A stretch of DNA of 64,000 nucleotides from Bacteroidales bacterium (lineage in GTDB: Bacteria > Bacteroidota > Bacteroidia > Bacteroidales > UBA10428). The first letter of the stretch is position 1, and each line of letters begins with the position of its first letter. The translations under genes were made by a program, and so were the position numbers. Positions 16,422 to 23,075 of the stretch are shown here, in pieces. The stretch covers positions 85,782 to 149,781 of the forward strand of contig JAFGQZ010000073.1 in the NCBI GenBank assembly GCA_016935435.1, read 5' to 3'. Below the pieces are notes generated by a model. That model did not search any database. It saw only the letters and a list, made by a program, of their open reading frames with translations, and was not told where the DNA came from.

Positions 16422-17684
16422 TTAGTTGTTCTCTATGGTGGGCAGGTTAAACCAAAAAGTCGAACCTTTTTTAAGTTCACTTTCAACGCCTATTTGCCCA
16501 TTGTGTTTTTTTATAAATTCCTGGCAGAGTATTAAACCTAAACCAGTTCCTGATTCGTTTTCTGTTCCGGGTGTGGCAAATGATTGCTCAATTCTAAAAA
16601 GCTTTTCAATATTGGCTGAACTTATACCAATTCCGTTATCTTCGACACGAACTAAAATGCCTTTGGTTTTTTGCACTGATGATATGCATACTTCGCCTTT
16701 GGGATAACTGTATTTTATGGCATTTGAAACCAGATTTATAAGCACTGTTTTAATCATATTCTTATCCGCAAAAATTTCGAGCTTGTCGGGTACGTTTAAC
16801 CGGAACGATATTTTTTTGTTTTGGGCCTGAAGCAATAAAACACTCGTTATTTCTTTGGTCAGGTCAGATAACTTAAACCACGAAGGGCTGTATTCAATTC
16901 TGTTTGTTTGTAACCTCGACCAATCGAGCAAATTGTTCAGGTAGTCAAAAGTTTTTGTTAATGTTTGATATAAAAGCGATGAATATTCGATGATTTTTTC
17001 ATTCTTGGTTTTTTTGCTTTCTTTTTCAAGAATTTCGCTCAGGAAAAGCAGAGAAGAAAAAGGCGACTTTAAATCGTGGGCAACTATTGAGAAGAACCTG
17101 TCTTTCGTAATGTTTGAAGCATTAAGTTCTTCAAGGTTCTTGCTGTTCTGAAGGGCAATTGCAGCATAGTCGCCGAAAGCTGCAGCCAGTTTTGCATCGT
17201 TTTCGGTGAAATCGCCATCTTTGCATGCAAAGCCCATAATGCCAACGGTTTTATTGTCGATATTTAATGGGCTGAAAAGTACATTCCTAAGTGACATGTG
17301 CCCTTTTGGCATAAACTTTACCCATTCGCTTTTCATGAAGTTGTTATCAAACACAACTTTTCCCGATCGGTAGGCTTCTTCCCGCAAACCTCTTATGGGC
17401 ATAGGCAAGGCGGGGTTAACACTACAGGGCATTCCGCCATCCTCCAAAAACAACAACTCGTTTTCCTGTCCATCGTCAGACAATAGGGCCACATACCCCG
17501 ATTTTGCCCCAATTACCTTTGCACAACTATCAAAAACCTGTCGGGCAGTAATTCTAAAATCGTTCGATTTTAAAATTGCCTTTGTTGCAATAAGCAATTC
17601 GGTAATTTCTTTTTCTTTTCTTTCATGTTCTTTCAAAACATTTTGAACCGTTTCGGAACATTTATCTAATTCATCGTTGTTCAT
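16422..17684 (-). CDS. GAF-domain sensor histidine kinase
   Basis: A 420-residue soluble kinase. A short coil (residues 1-30) is followed by a GAF domain (about 40-185), a HisKA box (FSIVAHDLKSPFSS, about 208) and a HATPase_c domain (NAIKYSYPKG, DNGIGIS, GTGLGLILCQEF). There is no membrane segment or receiver, so the partner regulator is encoded elsewhere. The catalytic half closely resembles that of the corrinoid-linked kinase just upstream (both share the pattern TKDRFFSI.AHDLKSP), which points to a shared ancestry or a local duplication. It is separated from that gene by 254 bp, so it need not belong to the same operon. The signal is unknown. Confidence 0.88.
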   Translation of the reverse strand: MNNDELDKCSETVQNVLKEHERKEKEITELLIATKAILKSNDFRITARQVFDSCAKVIGAKSGYVALLSDDGQENELLFLEDGGMPCSVNPALPMPIRGLREEAYRSGKVVFDNNFMKSEWVKFMPKGHMSLRNVLFSPLNIDNKTVGIMGFACKDGDFTENDAKLAAAFGDYAAIALQNSKNLEELNASNITKDRFFSIVAHDLKSPFSSLLFLSEILEKESKKTKNEKIIEYSSLLYQTLTKTFDYLNNLLDWSRLQTNRIEYSPSWFKLSDLTKEITSVLLLQAQNKKISFRLNVPDKLEIFADKNMIKTVLINLVSNAIKYSYPKGEVCISSVQKTKGILVRVEDNGIGISSANIEKLFRIEQSFATPGTENESGTGLGLILCQEFIKKHNGQIGVESELKKGSTFWFNLPTIENN

Positions 17685-17938: not shown

Positions 17939-19681
17939 TTACGCCTTTGCAATATGGTTTGGTAAAGTGAAATAAAATGCTGAGCCTTTGCCGGGTTCGC
18001 TTTCAACCCAAATTTTTTTGTCATGCTTTCTGATGAATTCTTCACAAAGCAACAACCCCAGCCCGGTTCCTGCTTCGTTTGCAGTACCTGGTGTGGTGTA
18101 ATTTGAATCTATTCGGAACAATTTGTCTATTCTGTCTTTCGGTATTCCTAATCCGTTATCTTTTACCGTTACAATGCATTCGTTTCTTTCAACTTTCAAT
18201 GATATTGTAACTTCGCCATCCGGCTTTGTAAATTTAACCGCATTCGAAAGAAGGTTTCTCAGAACAGTGCTTATCATTGCCATATCAGCAAAAACCAGGG
18301 CTTTGGGGGGTAATAACCTTTTGATTGTTATTCTTTTTTGCCCGGCTATATCATCAAACATGGGTATAATATCATAAGCGAGTTTTGTTAAATCGAACTC
18401 CCGGGGCGTGTATTCCATCCTGCCGGTTTGGGATTGCGACCATTGCATAAGGTTCATAAGTAAATTAACTGCCCTTTGCGACGATTGCAGAATGATACCG
18501 GCATATTTTTCAATACTGGCAATGTCATTCTTTTCTATTTGCTCAACAAGTATCTCGCTAAACCCGACAATTGAACTTAACGGGCTTTTCAAATCGTGGG
18601 CTATTATGGAGAAGAATCTGTCTTTGGTGGCATTAAGCGCGGTTAACATGGCTTTACTCTCTTTTAGTGCCTTATTGGCATCTTCAAGTTCGGAGTATTT
18701 TCGTGCATTGGCAATTGCCATTCCAAATATTTGGCTGATAACAATTCCCATCTCTTCATATTTCTTTCTAAATTGTGGAAAATGAATGCCAATAACCTCA
18801 ACAGTCCCTAATAATTCACCGGCATATTTAATTTCAATTTTGAAAGAGTTTTCTGAGTTGATACCAACAGAGTTAAAAAAGCCCTTAAACTCGAATAATT
18901 CTAACCGATCGTTGTTTATAGGTTTATAAACTATTTCTGAAGGTGCAAATAAAACATGTATCAATTCAACTCCAATTTTTGTTATTTCTTTTTCGCTTGT
19001 CAGGCTAACAAGTGTTTCTAATTGATTAAAAATAAGCTGGTAATCGGCACTTTGTTTTGAAATAGCCGAAAGTTTGGCACTTAATTTTTTTTGTTCATTG
19101 TCGTTTCTCCAGTTTAGTACTACAGAATCGATATATTTTTTGCAATGCGACAAGCCTGTGGGGAAGATCTCGTATGGCAAACCCATATAGTCGGAAAGGG
19201 CCAGAAGGTTAGGCATATAATCGCCCGGAATTTTTGTGTCGAGTAACAATATAGATTTCATCGATTCCTGAAAAAACAACCGGCCCGATGTTTTGTCAAA
19301 ACCCCAGGCGCGTATATTGCGTTCACAGGTCTTTAGCCACCCATTGGTTACAATATAGTAACCTTGTTTTACAAAATGATATATTGTTTCGGGGTTTATA
19401 ATGAGTTCAAAGCATTGTTCCAATTGAACAACCTGAACGTTTTTTAAGCCAGCGATTTCAGATTTCTGGGGTACATGGCAAAAACTCCCGAAAACAATAA
19501 TGTCGGAACCAGAAACCGATTTTGATGAAATTTCGTTAACCACGGCCAAATTAAGCGAGTTCGAGGCGCAATTAGCCGGATAGGAGATTAACTGCACCTC
19601 TGGATAATTGCCATTTTTAATAACCTGTGCAATTTCCGGAATTAAAAAGTTGCATGCTGATAAGGTCAGTTTTTCATCCAT
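17939..19681 (-). CDS. DUF1638-like / GAF histidine kinase linked to a corrinoid system
   Basis: A 580-residue soluble kinase with an unusual front end. Residues 1-195 (LSACNFLIPEI, an FGSFCHVP segment, GYYIVTNGWL, LLLDTKIPGD) resemble DUF1638, a family often found beside corrinoid methyltransferases. A GAF-like domain (about 205-345) follows, then a HisKA box (IIAHDLKSPLSS, about 365) and a HATPase_c domain (NAVKFTKPDG, DNGLGIPKD, GTGLGLLLCEEF). It starts at ATG 19681, sharing one base with the stop of the methyltransferase gene (TGATG), so translation is coupled. I infer that the front end senses the state of the methyl-transfer proteins encoded with it. The DUF1638 assignment is from memory and is moderately sure. 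Confidence 0.75.
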   Translation of the reverse strand: MDEKLTLSACNFLIPEIAQVIKNGNYPEVQLISYPANCASNSLNLAVVNEISSKSVSGSDIIVFGSFCHVPQKSEIAGLKNVQVVQLEQCFELIINPETIYHFVKQGYYIVTNGWLKTCERNIRAWGFDKTSGRLFFQESMKSILLLDTKIPGDYMPNLLALSDYMGLPYEIFPTGLSHCKKYIDSVVLNWRNDNEQKKLSAKLSAISKQSADYQLIFNQLETLVSLTSEKEITKIGVELIHVLFAPSEIVYKPINNDRLELFEFKGFFNSVGINSENSFKIEIKYAGELLGTVEVIGIHFPQFRKKYEEMGIVISQIFGMAIANARKYSELEDANKALKESKAMLTALNATKDRFFSIIAHDLKSPLSSIVGFSEILVEQIEKNDIASIEKYAGIILQSSQRAVNLLMNLMQWSQSQTGRMEYTPREFDLTKLAYDIIPMFDDIAGQKRITIKRLLPPKALVFADMAMISTVLRNLLSNAVKFTKPDGEVTISLKVERNECIVTVKDNGLGIPKDRIDKLFRIDSNYTTPGTANEAGTGLGLLLCEEFIRKHDKKIWVESEPGKGSAFYFTLPNHIAKA

Positions 19682-20733
19682 CAAGCCTGCACTTTTTGAA
19701 TTGGGTAGGTTCCATATTTTTTTACAGCCTCTTTAATTGCCAATAAAGTTTCGTCTTTCACCTGAAAGGGTATTTCGCCATGATTATCGGCCAGGATAAA
19801 GCCGCCGCCCGAAGCTGCTTTTTCTATTACGCCTTTAACAATATTTGTGGCTTCTTCTTTTGTCCAACGCCTCATTTCTATTCCATTCAAATTTCCTAAA
19901 ACCGATAATTTATTTTTAAAAGCTTGCTTTAATTCACTGATGTTTTCCTGTGCGCTTACCCCTACCACTGCTGTTCCGGTTTGGAGCAGTAAACCAGACA
20001 GTGTTAAGCAATTGCCGGAAGCAAAGTGGGTGGCCGTTGGCCCATTAATTTTTGCAATGGTTTGTTTTGCCACCTGAAAGCCGGTTTTGTAATAAAGTTC
20101 TTTGGGGACTATGGTGGTGGAGGAAACCGGATCGAAATAGCAAATTGCTGTGGCACCGGCAGCCAGTTGGGCATTTGCCCAATCGATACAAAAGGCCATG
20201 TTGATTTTCATTAAATGCTCAAACAAATCGAGGTGATAATGCATGAGCTCAAGGTATTTTTCAAACCCAAGTTGCATTACAGGCAAGGAAAAAGGCGACA
20301 TTGCAACACCTATAATTGGTAAATTCCCTTTGCTTTCTGCTTTGAGAATTTCAATTGATTTTAAAACTTTATGCAACACTTTAGTGTTTTCCACTCGCGG
20401 TGCTTCCAGTTTTTTAATGTCAGATATATTGTTAATTACAGGTAACCCCGAATTTGGAGGGCCATCTTCACTATAAATTACTTCTGCTCCAAATGCTTCA
20501 ACTTCGATTGGGGCATAGAAAAAAGGATAATAACAATCTGAAGTGTACTTTTTTTGCAGTCTTTTCTGGCCTTCAGCCACATTTTCGGCCTTTGAAAAGT
20601 ATTCTTTAATGCTCAAGCCCAGTTCTTTTGCACCATGCATTGTGAGCATTAAAAACAATGGTACACGATCGGGTTCCTTATGCGACAGTGTGGTTAAAAC
20701 ACGCTCCATCGGGGTCATTTCGGCATGTTTCAT
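19681..20733 (-). CDS. URO-D family methyltransferase, MtaA/CmuA-like with altered metal site
   Basis: A 350-residue protein of the uroporphyrinogen decarboxylase superfamily, in the branch of corrinoid methyltransferases (start MTPMERVLTTLSHKEPDRVP). Known members bind zinc through an H-x-C pair and a distant Cys in a GCDIP-like motif, and use it to activate a thiol such as coenzyme M. Here the matching places read THFASGNC and ADNHGEIP, so the first Cys is Ala and the last Cys is gone. A different ligand set (His, the shifted Cys, His) or loss of activity is possible. It is co-encoded with a corrinoid protein upstream (4-bp ATGA overlap) and a kinase downstream, which argues for a joint task. 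Confidence 0.82.
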   Translation of the reverse strand: MKHAEMTPMERVLTTLSHKEPDRVPLFLMLTMHGAKELGLSIKEYFSKAENVAEGQKRLQKKYTSDCYYPFFYAPIEVEAFGAEVIYSEDGPPNSGLPVINNISDIKKLEAPRVENTKVLHKVLKSIEILKAESKGNLPIIGVAMSPFSLPVMQLGFEKYLELMHYHLDLFEHLMKINMAFCIDWANAQLAAGATAICYFDPVSSTTIVPKELYYKTGFQVAKQTIAKINGPTATHFASGNCLTLSGLLLQTGTAVVGVSAQENISELKQAFKNKLSVLGNLNGIEMRRWTKEEATNIVKGVIEKAASGGGFILADNHGEIPFQVKDETLLAIKEAVKKYGTYPIQKVQA

Positions 20734-21368
20734 AGTCTATCCCCCATAATTTTTTGTACAATTTGTAATGCTTCAGAGGAATCTTTCCCGTAATAATCGG
20801 CATTCACTTCCTTCCATAATTGCTCATCAAAGCGGAATGGCGCGCCGCCCACTACAATAGTTACATCACTATTGTGTAGTTGCGTTTTTAGTTCTTTAAC
20901 GCGAAGTGCCGATGATAACATCAATACAGAGAGCAACAATATTTTTATATCTTCGGCTTTTACAATGTCAATAAGGCGTTCGATACTTAAGCCCCCGCCT
21001 AAGTCAACCAGTTCAAAACCGCTTGCCCTTAGTGTTGAGTAGATTATTCTTTTTCCAAGCAAATGAAAATCTTCCAACACGGCAATGGCCATTTTAGGTT
21101 GGCTTTTTCTGATCGGGCTTTGTGGGGGCAGAATTTTATCGATTACTTTTTCGCAAATTATGCCACTCATATAAACTTGCGACAACGATAGATTTCCCAG
21201 TTCCCATGAATCGCCAATTCTCATTAAGGTTGATGATATTAATTCACCGGCAATTATATCGGGCGAATTGTTGCCCTGGGCTTCCCTTACTATTTGTATT
21301 GCTGCTTCCTGATCGAGTGATAGCAAGGCGTGTTCAAGCTGAACACTGGTACTTTGGAGCCGTTCCAT
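20730..21368 (-). CDS. Corrinoid (B12)-binding methyl-carrier protein
   Basis: A 212-residue protein of the MtaC/MtbC/MetH-fragment type. The four-helix cap (about residues 10-80, with GDSWELGNLSLSQVY) is followed by a Rossmann B12 domain. The classic set DxHxxG (D100, H102, G105), SxL 41 residues later (S147-L149) and GG (G174-G175) is complete, so His102 should be the lower cobalt ligand. Such proteins carry a methyl group on cobalt between a substrate methyltransferase and an acceptor methyltransferase. No MtaB- or MttB-type substrate enzyme lies nearby. It is the first gene of the three-gene run and overlaps the next by ATGA. Confidence 0.9.
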   Translation of the reverse strand: MERLQSTSVQLEHALLSLDQEAAIQIVREAQGNNSPDIIAGELISSTLMRIGDSWELGNLSLSQVYMSGIICEKVIDKILPPQSPIRKSQPKMAIAVLEDFHLLGKRIIYSTLRASGFELVDLGGGLSIERLIDIVKAEDIKILLLSVLMLSSALRVKELKTQLHNSDVTIVVGGAPFRFDEQLWKEVNADYYGKDSSEALQIVQKIMGDRL

Positions 21369-21577: not shown

Positions 21578-23044
21578 CTAATCTTTTTCCCATAGGGTAC
21601 CTTCTTTGGTGTCTTTAAGGGTTACGCCGGCTTCTTTAAGTTTGTCCCTAATTAGGTCCGACAGGGCAAAATCTTTGTTTTTCCTTGCATCCAGGCGCAT
21701 GTCTATAATCATGTCCATGAGGGCTGATTCGAGGTTGCTGCCTGTTTCCTGCTCGGGCAACAAGCCGAGTATATCAAAGAATACCGGTTTGTAAAAATTT
21801 TTCAGTTTTTCCAGGTCGGATTCCGACAAGGTTTCGCGCCCGTCGTTCACCGAATTTATAATGCGGGCAGCCTCGAAAAGCTGTGCAATGGCAACCGGTG
21901 TGTTCAGGTCGTCGTTAAGTGCTGCAAAGCAGCCGTCGATGCAGGCCTGGATATCTGTCGAGCTGGCAGGGGCTGGTTTTATTTTTTCAAGTAGTTGCAG
22001 GGCATTGTTGAGCCTTGTAAATCCTTTTTCGGCGGCCTGCAGGGCTTCGTTCGAAAAATCGACTGTGCTGCGGTAATGGGCCTGCAACACAAAAAAGCGC
22101 ATGGTATTGGGCGAGTAGGCTTTGTCGAGTTTTTCGTGGTTCCCGGAGAAGAGTTGGTTTAAGGTAATAAAATTGTTCAGCGATTTGGCCATTTTTTGCC
22201 CGTCGATGGTCATCATGTTGTTGTGCATCCAGTAACGAACGTGTTCTTTGCCATTTGCGGCTGTCGATTGCGCAATCTCGCATTCGTGGTGCGGGAACAA
22301 CAGGTCCATGCCCCCACCGTGTATATCAAAGGTTTCGCCCAGGTATTTAGTTCCCATGGCCGAGCATTCGAGGTGCCAGCCCGGAAAGCCTTCGCCCCAC
22401 TCAGACGGCCAGCGCATGATATGTTCGGGGGCAGCTTTTTTCCATAAAGCAAAATCGAGCGGGTTACGTTTTTCCGATTGTCCGTCGAGCTCACGAGTGT
22501 TGACCAGCATATCTTCAACTTTTCGGCCCGAGAGTTTTCCGTAGTTATGTTTTTTATTATAGGTTTCAATATCGAAATAAACCGAGCCGTTAACGGTGTA
22601 TGCAAACCCCCGGTCGATGATTTTTTTTATCATCAGCTGTTGCTCTATAATATGGCCGGAAGCCTGCGGTTCAATGGTTGGCGGAAGTATGTTTAATTTC
22701 CTGAATGCATCGGCAAACAGGTTTTTATATTTTTGTACTATCTCCATGGGTTCCAGTTCTTCGAGTTTTGCCCTTTTGGCTATACGGTCTTCACCGGCCC
22801 CGGCAACTTCGTCTTCGAGGTGCCCCACATCGGTAATGTTTCTTACAAACCGTACTTTATAGCCCAAATGCAGCAGGTAACGATATAAAATGTCGAAAGT
22901 AATGGCCATGCGCACATGTCCCAGGTGGGGTTCGCCATAAACTGTAGGGCCACATACATAAAGGCCTGCATGTGGCGGGTTTAATGGTATAAAAAGTTCT
23001 TTCTGCCTCGACAGCGAGTTGTAAATTGTAAGCTGGTGTTTCAT
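21578..23044 (-). CDS. cysS: Cysteinyl-tRNA synthetase
   Basis: A 488-residue class I aminoacyl-tRNA synthetase that charges tRNA-Cys. The zinc site Cys and the HIGH-type motif sit in [13 protein letters not shown] (about residues 29-41). A second zinc motif is seen in GWHLECSAM, then [15 protein letters not shown], and the KMSKS-type loop reads KMAKSLNN. The ATG at 23044 (MKHQL) fits the family better than the in-frame ATG at 23050. A -7 box lies upstream at 23076-23083. Identification is secure and the gene is intact. Confidence 0.96.
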
Positions 23045-23075
23045 AAACATTGCTGATACCCGTTGAACAAAAATG

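What the first reader, a model, noticed from the sequence alone, without database searches (positions are those of the whole stretch)
17939..21368. Corrinoid protein, atypical methyltransferase and DUF1638-like histidine kinase fused into one translationally coupled cassette
Three minus-strand genes overlap stop to start (ATGA at 20730-20733, TGATG at 19679-19683): a B12 carrier with a complete DxHxxG-41-SxL-24-GG set, a URO-D-type methyltransferase, and a histidine kinase whose front 195 residues resemble DUF1638. No MtaB/MttB-type substrate methyltransferase lies nearby. This suggests a methyl-transfer module used for sensing (methylation state or methyl donor read out by the kinase), rather than a catabolic pathway. 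I know of no characterised B12-methyltransferase system whose kinase is encoded in the same coupled operon with this domain order.
Basis: partly seen in the sequence, partly recalled or inferred. Interest (0 to 1): 0.85.

Follow-up and report, generated by a model that had tools for sequence, protein, structure and literature searches.

The report
Vitamin B12 carrier wired to kinase
Three overlapping bacterial genes, a set that recurs in related bacteria, encode a predicted vitamin-B12 carrier, a methyltransferase look-alike without the expected zinc-binding residues, and a histidine kinase, and together they likely let the cell sense a methyl compound or the chemical state of B12 rather than feed on methyl compounds.

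Summary
Corrinoid protein (COR), UROD-fold protein (URO) and a DUF1638–GAF-like–histidine kinase overlap as stated; the assigned Pfam domains pass curated cut-offs. The set is conserved: of 22 COR–URO–DUF1638 loci read, kinase domains are seen fused to DUF1638 or in the next gene in 16; in 3 more that gene is cut by a contig end. The joints move (DUF1638–kinase fusion, separate genes, URO–DUF1638 fusion, a swapped kinase type), so COR+URO+DUF1638 looks like one input unit on exchangeable kinases. COR keeps the B12 motif in 25 of 25. URO has the MtaA zinc motif HxC in 0 of 240 homologues, one unaligned, whereas a UROD protein in a RamA-containing cluster has it. The window's genome shows no RamA, MtaB or MttB. 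Elsewhere DUF1638 sits in catabolic corrinoid operons and is needed for B12-dependent methionine synthesis in Phaeobacter. So this is most likely a sensor derived from corrinoid methyl-transfer machinery; what it senses and how is inferred. The mec cassette is a known corrinoid cassette with its own kinase; I found no described counterpart of this module.

The parts
20730..21368 (-). COR: corrinoid (B12-binding) protein, 212 aa, DxHxxG / SxL / GG motifs
   Evidence: DxHxxG in 25 of 25 COR proteins of related loci
19681..20733 (-). URO: UROD-fold protein, 350 aa, nearest NCBIfam models MtaA/MtbA/CmuA (below their cut-offs), without the zinc motif HxC...C
17939..19681 (-). DUF1638 - GAF-like - HisKA - HATPase_c sensor histidine kinase, 580 aa
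19097..19681 (-). DUF1638 domain (residues 1-195), Cys10/38/68/90 each just after one of the first four predicted strands
18662..19096 (-). GAF-like middle domain and coiled-coil helix (residues 196-340)
   Evidence: predicted model and fold matches to GAF domains; no Pfam match
18422..18625 (-). HisKA dimerisation/phosphoacceptor domain; catalytic His362 (580-aa numbering)
   Evidence: His present in 56 of 57 homologues (one gap)
17957..18274 (-). HATPase_c catalytic domain
20730..20733 (-). ATGA overlap COR stop / URO start
19679..19683 (-). TGATG overlap URO stop / kinase start

Best explanation
This is likely a soluble sensory module derived from corrinoid methyl-transfer machinery, in which the UROD-fold protein, which lacks the expected zinc motif, is predicted to bind the signal molecule and act on the predicted B12 carrier, and DUF1638 would read the carrier's cobalt state and switch the fused histidine kinase. 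Shown by sequence: the three coupled genes, the kept corrinoid motif, the missing zinc motif, the kept cysteines and kinase residues, and recurrence of the set with changing kinases. Inferred: that COR holds cobalamin; that a methyl group, or a change of cobalt redox state, is the message; that DUF1638 docks on COR; and that the kinase answers to it. The proposed cycle: URO binds a small, perhaps methylated, signal and either loads the methyl onto Co(I) or gates access to the cobalt; the loaded or oxidised COR is recognised by DUF1638, whose cysteines may hold a metal or Fe-S centre; the GAF-like and coiled-coil linker passes the change to HisKA. The phosphate acceptor is unknown.
For: Recurrence and modularity: DUF1638 fused to the kinase (window, L027, L031, L032, L033), COR-URO-DUF1638-HK as separate genes (L042, L079, L080, L081, L082, L085, L087, L096, L097), URO-DUF1638 fusion followed by HK (L074), HisKA_2-type kinase in the same place (L095). 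COR motif DxHxxG 25 of 25; kinase His362 in 56 of 57 homologues; Cys10/38/68/90 in 54/56/56/55 of 57, all but one of the exceptions being gaps. Zinc motif HxC in 0 of 240 URO homologues (1 unaligned); kept residues stand in its place, nearly uniform in the window's group (THFASG...DNHGEIP) and in two main variants in the separate-gene group (HNGG or HHGG...SNADIP), which argues for a kept binding site rather than decay. The metabolic UROD of L094, in a cluster with an MtgC-like protein, DUF1638 and RamA, has HNC...SGC. DUF1638 is tied to corrinoid methyl transfer: Phaeobacter fitness data (passages of PMC5764234) and 10 of 25 survey loci in MttB- or MtaB-type operons. No RamA, MtaB or MTTB in the window's genome; no MttB-, MtaB-, RamA- or methyltetrahydrofolate-transferase-like frame in the stretches read around any of the 22 module loci.
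Against: No biochemistry. URO might still transfer methyl groups without the MtaA-type zinc site, or might not bind COR at all. In 6 of 22 loci no kinase domain is seen fused or in the next gene: L035 and L036 have none, L026 has a kinase upstream of COR instead, and L028, L030 and L039 are cut by contig ends. L038, L040 and L041 have URO-HK without DUF1638, L034 has URO alone. One metabolic DUF1638 locus (L029) also has a kinase-containing gene next, 242 bases on. The predicted DUF1638 fold gives no specific structural relative, so the metal-site idea rests on sequence and strand positions only. Kinases are common near these loci.
Confidence: 0.5

Rival explanations
1. Cobalamin as redox, oxygen or light sensor: COR's cobalt state changes with the environment, URO is only a scaffold or gate, and no methyl transfer takes place.
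For: Zinc motif absent in URO; no RamA found in 14 of 18 genomes checked, so no RamA-type reactivator for a turning-over methyltransferase there; several partner kinases also carry PAS domains.
Against: A pure redox sensor would not need a UROD barrel whose pocket residues are this strongly kept. Absence of RamA does not exclude another reductant.
Confidence: 0.22
2. A working corrinoid methyltransferase (URO as substrate methyltransferase in the manner of CmuA) whose kinase regulates its use, like the mec cassette for dichloromethane.
For: mec cassette joins HK, response regulator, corrinoid protein and MtaA/CmuA-family protein (passages of PMC9768040). The best NCBIfam matches of URO are methylcobamide:CoM and MtaA/CmuA methyltransferases.
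Against: No methyltetrahydrofolate-transferase-like, MttB-, MtaB- or RamA-like frame in the stretches read around 22 module loci; no RamA, MtaB or MTTB in the window's genome; URO scores 109 bits against a 235-bit cut-off for mtaA_cmuA and lacks the zinc motif.
Confidence: 0.2
3. Corrinoid supply sensor: the module reports B12 availability through loaded versus empty COR.
For: A dedicated B12 protein coupled to a kinase; the genome has two other B12-binding_2 proteins, by eye a methionine synthase and a MerR-type regulator.
Against: No Rfam match, hence no cobalamin riboswitch, in the window, and in 8 module loci only a tRNA and a DUF805b element; no B12 uptake or synthesis gene among the window neighbours identified; a supply sensor would not need a UROD-fold partner.
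Confidence: 0.08

Closest known systems
mec cassette of dichloromethane-fermenting Peptococcaceae (passages of PMC9768040)
   Same: Histidine kinase, corrinoid protein and MtaA/CmuA-family protein in one cassette; MecG/H are described there as likely corrinoid reactivation proteins.
   Different: Catabolic; has a response regulator, MTII and transporter; its kinase carries a PocR domain, not DUF1638. I did not see which family MecH belongs to.
DUF1638 of corrinoid methyl-transfer operons (Phaeobacter three-part methionine synthase, passages of PMC5764234; Ruegeria glycine-betaine demethylation, passage of PMC12478193; L029 and nine MttB-type loci here)
   Same: DUF1638 goes with a corrinoid protein; three of the four cysteines are shared with L029.
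   Different: There it goes with RamA, MttB/MtaB or methyltetrahydrofolate transferase, in the MttB-type loci without a kinase next to it; here it goes with a URO lacking the zinc motif and a kinase, and the fused form has an extra Cys38.
MtaA/MtbA/CmuA methyltransferases
   Same: UROD fold; corrinoid partner (recalled for these enzymes).
   Different: Zinc motif HxC...C absent; below subfamily cut-offs.
MsmS/RdmS methyltransferase-associated kinases of Methanosarcina (passages of a review, PMC6944256)
   Same: Kinases tied to methyl metabolism, redox-responsive.
   Different: Sense through heme or thiol in proteins with PAS and GAF domains; the passages seen name no corrinoid protein or UROD partner.
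CarH/LitR-type B12 regulators (recalled)
   Same: B12-binding domain used for regulation.
   Different: B12 domain fused to a MerR DNA-binding domain; here COR is separate and the output is a kinase.

Membership tests
MtaA/CmuA methylcobamide methyltransferase | UROD fold (PF01208) | tested here: met
   187.8 bits, cut-off 23.9
MtaA/CmuA methylcobamide methyltransferase | Zinc motif HxC...C (that these are the zinc ligands is recalled) | tested here: not met
   HFA...NHG in the window; HxC in 0 of 240 homologues, 1 unaligned; positive control L094 HNC...SGC
MtaA/CmuA methylcobamide methyltransferase | Score above NCBIfam TIGR01463 cut-off (235.4) | tested here: not met
   109.4 bits
HemE uroporphyrinogen decarboxylase | Score above TIGR01464 cut-off (302.95) | tested here: not met
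   59.8 bits; the genome has one other UROD protein at C75, 316.7 bits to PF01208, taken as HemE
Methyltransferase corrinoid proteins (MtaC/MtbC/MttC kind) | B12-binding_2 plus B12-binding domains, DxHxxG, SxL, GG | tested here: met
Methyltransferase corrinoid proteins (MtaC/MtbC/MttC kind) | Score above NCBIfam TIGR02370 cut-off (215.3) | tested here: not met
   76.4 bits
Methyltransferase corrinoid proteins (MtaC/MtbC/MttC kind) | Actual cobalamin binding | not testable with these tools
   needs protein
DUF1638 (PF07796) | Score above gathering cut-off (27) | tested here: met
   34.5 bits, residues 42-183
HisKA sensor histidine kinase | HisKA and HATPase_c above cut-off, phosphoacceptor His | tested here: met
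HisKA sensor histidine kinase | Cognate response regulator next to it | tested here: not met
   Adjacent genes are another kinase (16422-17684) and CysS (21578-23050)
mec cassette | PocR-domain kinase, response regulator, MTII in the cassette | tested here: not met
   for the window; one PocR kinase was seen near the module in L033, a separate gene on the opposite strand
CarH/LitR B12 regulator | MerR DNA-binding domain fused to the B12 domain | tested here: not met
   COR has B12 domains only

The most novel reading that the evidence does not exclude
A previously undescribed class of bacterial two-component input: a dedicated, non-catabolic corrinoid methyl-transfer complex (B12 carrier, zinc-less UROD receptor, cysteine-rich DUF1638 reader) in which the methylation of B12 itself is the signal, plugged onto interchangeable histidine kinases across the window's phylum and possibly beyond.
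Probability: 0.4. Interest if true: 0.88.

Novelty: new variant of a known kind. Interest (0 to 1): 0.68.

Why it matters
B12 is known in regulation mainly through riboswitches and light-responsive repressors (recalled). A kinase input built from methyl-transfer machinery would add a way to sense methylated compounds or cobalt redox state; would give DUF1638, a domain that Price and colleagues found needed for methionine synthesis but for which they had no specific proposal, a testable role as reader or reactivator of corrinoid proteins; and would warn against names such as uroporphyrinogen decarboxylase or MtbA, which sources give to proteins of this kind (240 such proteins examined).

Tried and rejected

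Rows dropped or corrected: L037 has an open frame joining URO residues to kinase residues, probably a deletion or misassembly; its COR is among the 25, but the locus is not among the 22. L042's DUF1638 is split in two frames; it is counted as a DUF1638 gene. L039's next gene matches the L042 kinase (318 bits) and L030 has an 80-residue frame matching it (33 bits), but both are cut by the contig end before any kinase domain, so neither is counted as a kinase seen; I had first counted L039. In one search the wrong reading frame (a HemN-like protein) was used as HemE control; corrected. P0251, a URO with an AraC-type end, lies on a 1.4-kb contig with a partial HTH and is treated as a probable chimaera. 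PF07796 missed L032 and L036, found by phmmer, so the order and phylum surveys are lower bounds. RamA/MtaB/MTTB were checked in 18 genomes only, not in the nine module or DUF1638 genomes found later (G503, G576, G578, G608, G671, G736, G073, G302, G094), nor in those of the MttB-type loci. The Tyr-Cys URO group (L038, L040, L041, L095, L097) was not searched for; its motif was read only. The 57 proteins include a few partial ones.
Full report
WHAT IS THERE. COR has both B12 domains and the exact motif spacing reported (DFHLLG, 41 residues, SVL, 24, GG, read from the sequence). URO is a UROD-fold protein at 187.8 bits. The kinase begins with DUF1638 (34.5 bits, cut-off 27) and ends with HisKA and HATPase_c. 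The part between is predicted to be GAF-like. Where sources name the nearest homologues they are mostly Bacteroidales and other Bacteroidota; the window's genome itself is unnamed, 3.94 Mb, 93.5% complete.

IT IS CONSERVED. A search with the DUF1638 half of the kinase found 57 proteins. 30 of these 57 (29 without the window's own) have the same longest-contig length as one of the 120 listed URO homologues, out of 4186 hits, an indirect sign of linkage. Whole-genome surveys made it direct. URO-like proteins were found in 13 of 393 genomes of the order (E <= 1e-40) and 2 of 395 of the phylum (E <= 1e-60), the window's own included, so the module is sparse. DUF1638 was found in 24 of 393 genomes of the order, 25 genes. 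I read the surroundings of all 25. 14 are COR–URO–DUF1638 loci: 3 have the kinase fused (window, L031, L033), 8 have it as the next gene with kinase domains seen (L042, L074, L079, L080, L081, L082, L085, L087), 2 are cut by the contig end inside a next gene that resembles the L042 kinase (L039 at 318 bits, L030 at 33 bits), and 1 has no kinase (L035). 9 are MttB-type operons; six of them show the whole run of MtgC-like corrinoid protein, two MttB-like proteins, hydantoinase-like protein, DUF1638, methyltetrahydrofolate:corrinoid methyltransferase and sarcosine/dimethylglycine N-methyltransferase-like protein (L072, L073, L076, L077, L083, L088), and three show part of it up to a contig end (L075, L078, L086). 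1 is MtaC–MtaB–RamA–DUF1638 (L029), followed after 242 bases by a very large protein kinase/histidine kinase. 1 is response regulator–HK–DUF1638 (L084). In the phylum, 5 of 395 genomes gave 6 genes: the window, three more COR–URO–DUF1638–HK loci (L095, L096, L097), L026 with a kinase upstream of COR, and one metabolic locus, L094. Adding L027 and L028 and L032 and L036, I read 22 COR–URO–DUF1638 loci. Kinase domains are seen fused (5: window, L027, L031, L032, L033) or in the next gene (11) in 16 of 22. The other six are L028, L030 and L039 (cut by contig ends), L026 (kinase upstream), L035 and L036 (none).

MODULARITY. The order COR, URO, DUF1638, kinase is kept while the joints move: DUF1638–kinase fusion in the window's group, URO–DUF1638 fusion in L074, separate genes elsewhere, PAS inserts and receiver domains added to the kinase, and in L095 a kinase of the HisKA_2 type in place of HisKA. 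In the 15 loci measured the spacing is short as a rule; the exceptions are L087 COR–URO at 174, L039 and L042 URO–DUF1638 at 116 and 175, and L042 DUF1638–HK at 232, where DUF1638 is split. This is the pattern of one input unit on exchangeable outputs. On the third, MtaB or MTTB genes occur in G667 and G644 but away from the module.

WHAT THE PARTS KEEP AND LOSE. COR keeps DxHxxG in 25 of 25. In the 57 kinase homologues Cys10, Cys38, Cys68 and Cys90 are present in 54, 56, 56 and 55, and the phosphoacceptor His362 in 56; all exceptions are gaps but one Asp at position 90. The cysteines fall just after predicted strands 1 to 4 (5-10, 29-34, 60-66, 82-87), which would bring them to one edge of the sheet; that they bind a metal is inference. 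Cys10, Cys68 and Cys90 also occur in the separate and metabolic DUF1638 proteins aligned, while the fused L028 lacks Cys90; Cys38 is not in L030, L039, L042 or L029. URO differs: aligned to MtaA (4ay7), its H-F-A stands where MtaA has H-I-C, and HxC is found in 0 of 240 homologues from two searches (one row unaligned at this site and three at the second). In one search, none of 26 URO rows has the full motif; five rows of one clade keep the Cys but have Tyr for His (L038, L040, L041, L095, L097), and L027 and L034 lack even the His. The one UROD protein read in a metabolic cluster (L094, with an MtgC-like protein, DUF1638 and RamA) has HNC and SGC, a useful internal control. The replacing residues are themselves kept within each group, so a conserved but different site is likely. 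The tree separates three URO groups: the window's group of 10 (98/96), the separate-gene group of 11 (98/99) and the Tyr-Cys group of 5 (100/100); HemE and L094 sit on long branches and their placement is unsure.

NO CATABOLIC SETTING SEEN. In the window's genome no RamA (PF14574), MtaB (PF12176) or MTTB (PF06253) was found; over the 18 genomes checked they occur in 4, 3 and 1. In the stretches read around the 22 module loci no MttB-, MtaB-, RamA-, hydantoinase- or methyltetrahydrofolate-transferase-like frame was found; the same queries do find them in the metabolic loci. Other B12 proteins in the window's genome are, by eye, a methionine synthase and a MerR-type regulator, and there is one other UROD protein, taken as HemE. 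No cobalamin riboswitch was found in the window or in 8 module loci.

HOW IT LIKELY WORKS. DUF1638 is needed for B12-dependent methionine synthesis in Phaeobacter and its presence follows a RamA-like protein across alpha-proteobacteria (passages of PMC5764234); a later paper calls it predicted to enable recharging of cobalamin (passage of PMC12478193). A domain that works with corrinoid proteins in metabolism, here joined to a kinase and to a dedicated corrinoid protein, most simply reads that protein's state. URO, without its zinc motif, would supply specificity: it either loads a methyl group from an unknown donor without zinc chemistry or gates the cobalt. I therefore prefer a methyl-donor or cobalt-state sensor (0.5), over a pure redox sensor (0.22), a real but unrecognised catabolic methyltransferase (0.2) and a B12-supply sensor (0.08). 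Binding, methyl transfer, docking and kinase control are all untested.

AGAINST WHAT IS KNOWN. The mec cassette already joins a kinase, a corrinoid protein and an MtaA/CmuA-family protein (passages of PMC9768040), so a kinase inside a corrinoid cassette is not new in itself. New here, as far as ten searches of the open-licence library show, are the DUF1638 input, the UROD partner that consistently lacks the zinc motif, the absence of acceptor and substrate enzymes, and the recurrence with exchangeable kinases. Hence a new variant of a known kind, with a realistic chance of being a new input class.

Noticed in passing
window 16422-17684 (-): A second GAF-HisKA-HATPase kinase follows the module on the same strand after about 250 bases; it may be a partner or a tandem relative.
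   Followed up: partly
L029 4931-16255: MtaC-MtaB-RamA-DUF1638 cluster followed by a 2150-aa protein kinase/AAA/GAF/PAS/histidine kinase and preceded by a kinase-containing gene: a methanol-type system that may have its own sensors.
   Followed up: partly
L084 5394-8884: Sigma-54-type response regulator, histidine kinase and DUF1638 in a row without COR or URO.
   Followed up: no
L033 5650-8124 (+): A PocR-domain PAS kinase lies close to the module on the opposite strand; PocR is also the sensor domain of MecA.
   Followed up: no
P0057, Heliorestis convoluta: A DUF1638-HisKA-HATPase-receiver protein in an organism named outside Bacteroidota; its gene neighbourhood could not be fetched.
   Followed up: partly
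L038, L040, L041: URO-kinase without DUF1638, after COR in L038 and L040; in L041 no COR is seen in the 286 bases between contig start and URO. URO has Tyr-Tyr-Cys at the zinc site. L095 and L097 have the same URO type with DUF1638.
   Followed up: partly
L037 9912-11396 (+): One open frame joins the first part of URO to late DUF1638, GAF-like and kinase residues; probable deletion or misassembly.
   Followed up: no
L042 6818-7389 (-): DUF1638 split over two frames, by frameshift or assembly error.
   Followed up: no
P0251: URO whose last part is replaced by a partial AraC-type DNA-binding domain on a 1.4-kb contig; probably chimaeric.
   Followed up: partly
L072, L073, L076, L077, L083, L088: Repeated operon of MtgC-like, two MttB-like, hydantoinase-like, DUF1638, methyltetrahydrofolate methyltransferase and sarcosine/dimethylglycine N-methyltransferase-like genes, in several loci near AhcY- and MetK-like genes (the last two by eye): looks like betaine-linked methyl cycling.
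   Followed up: partly
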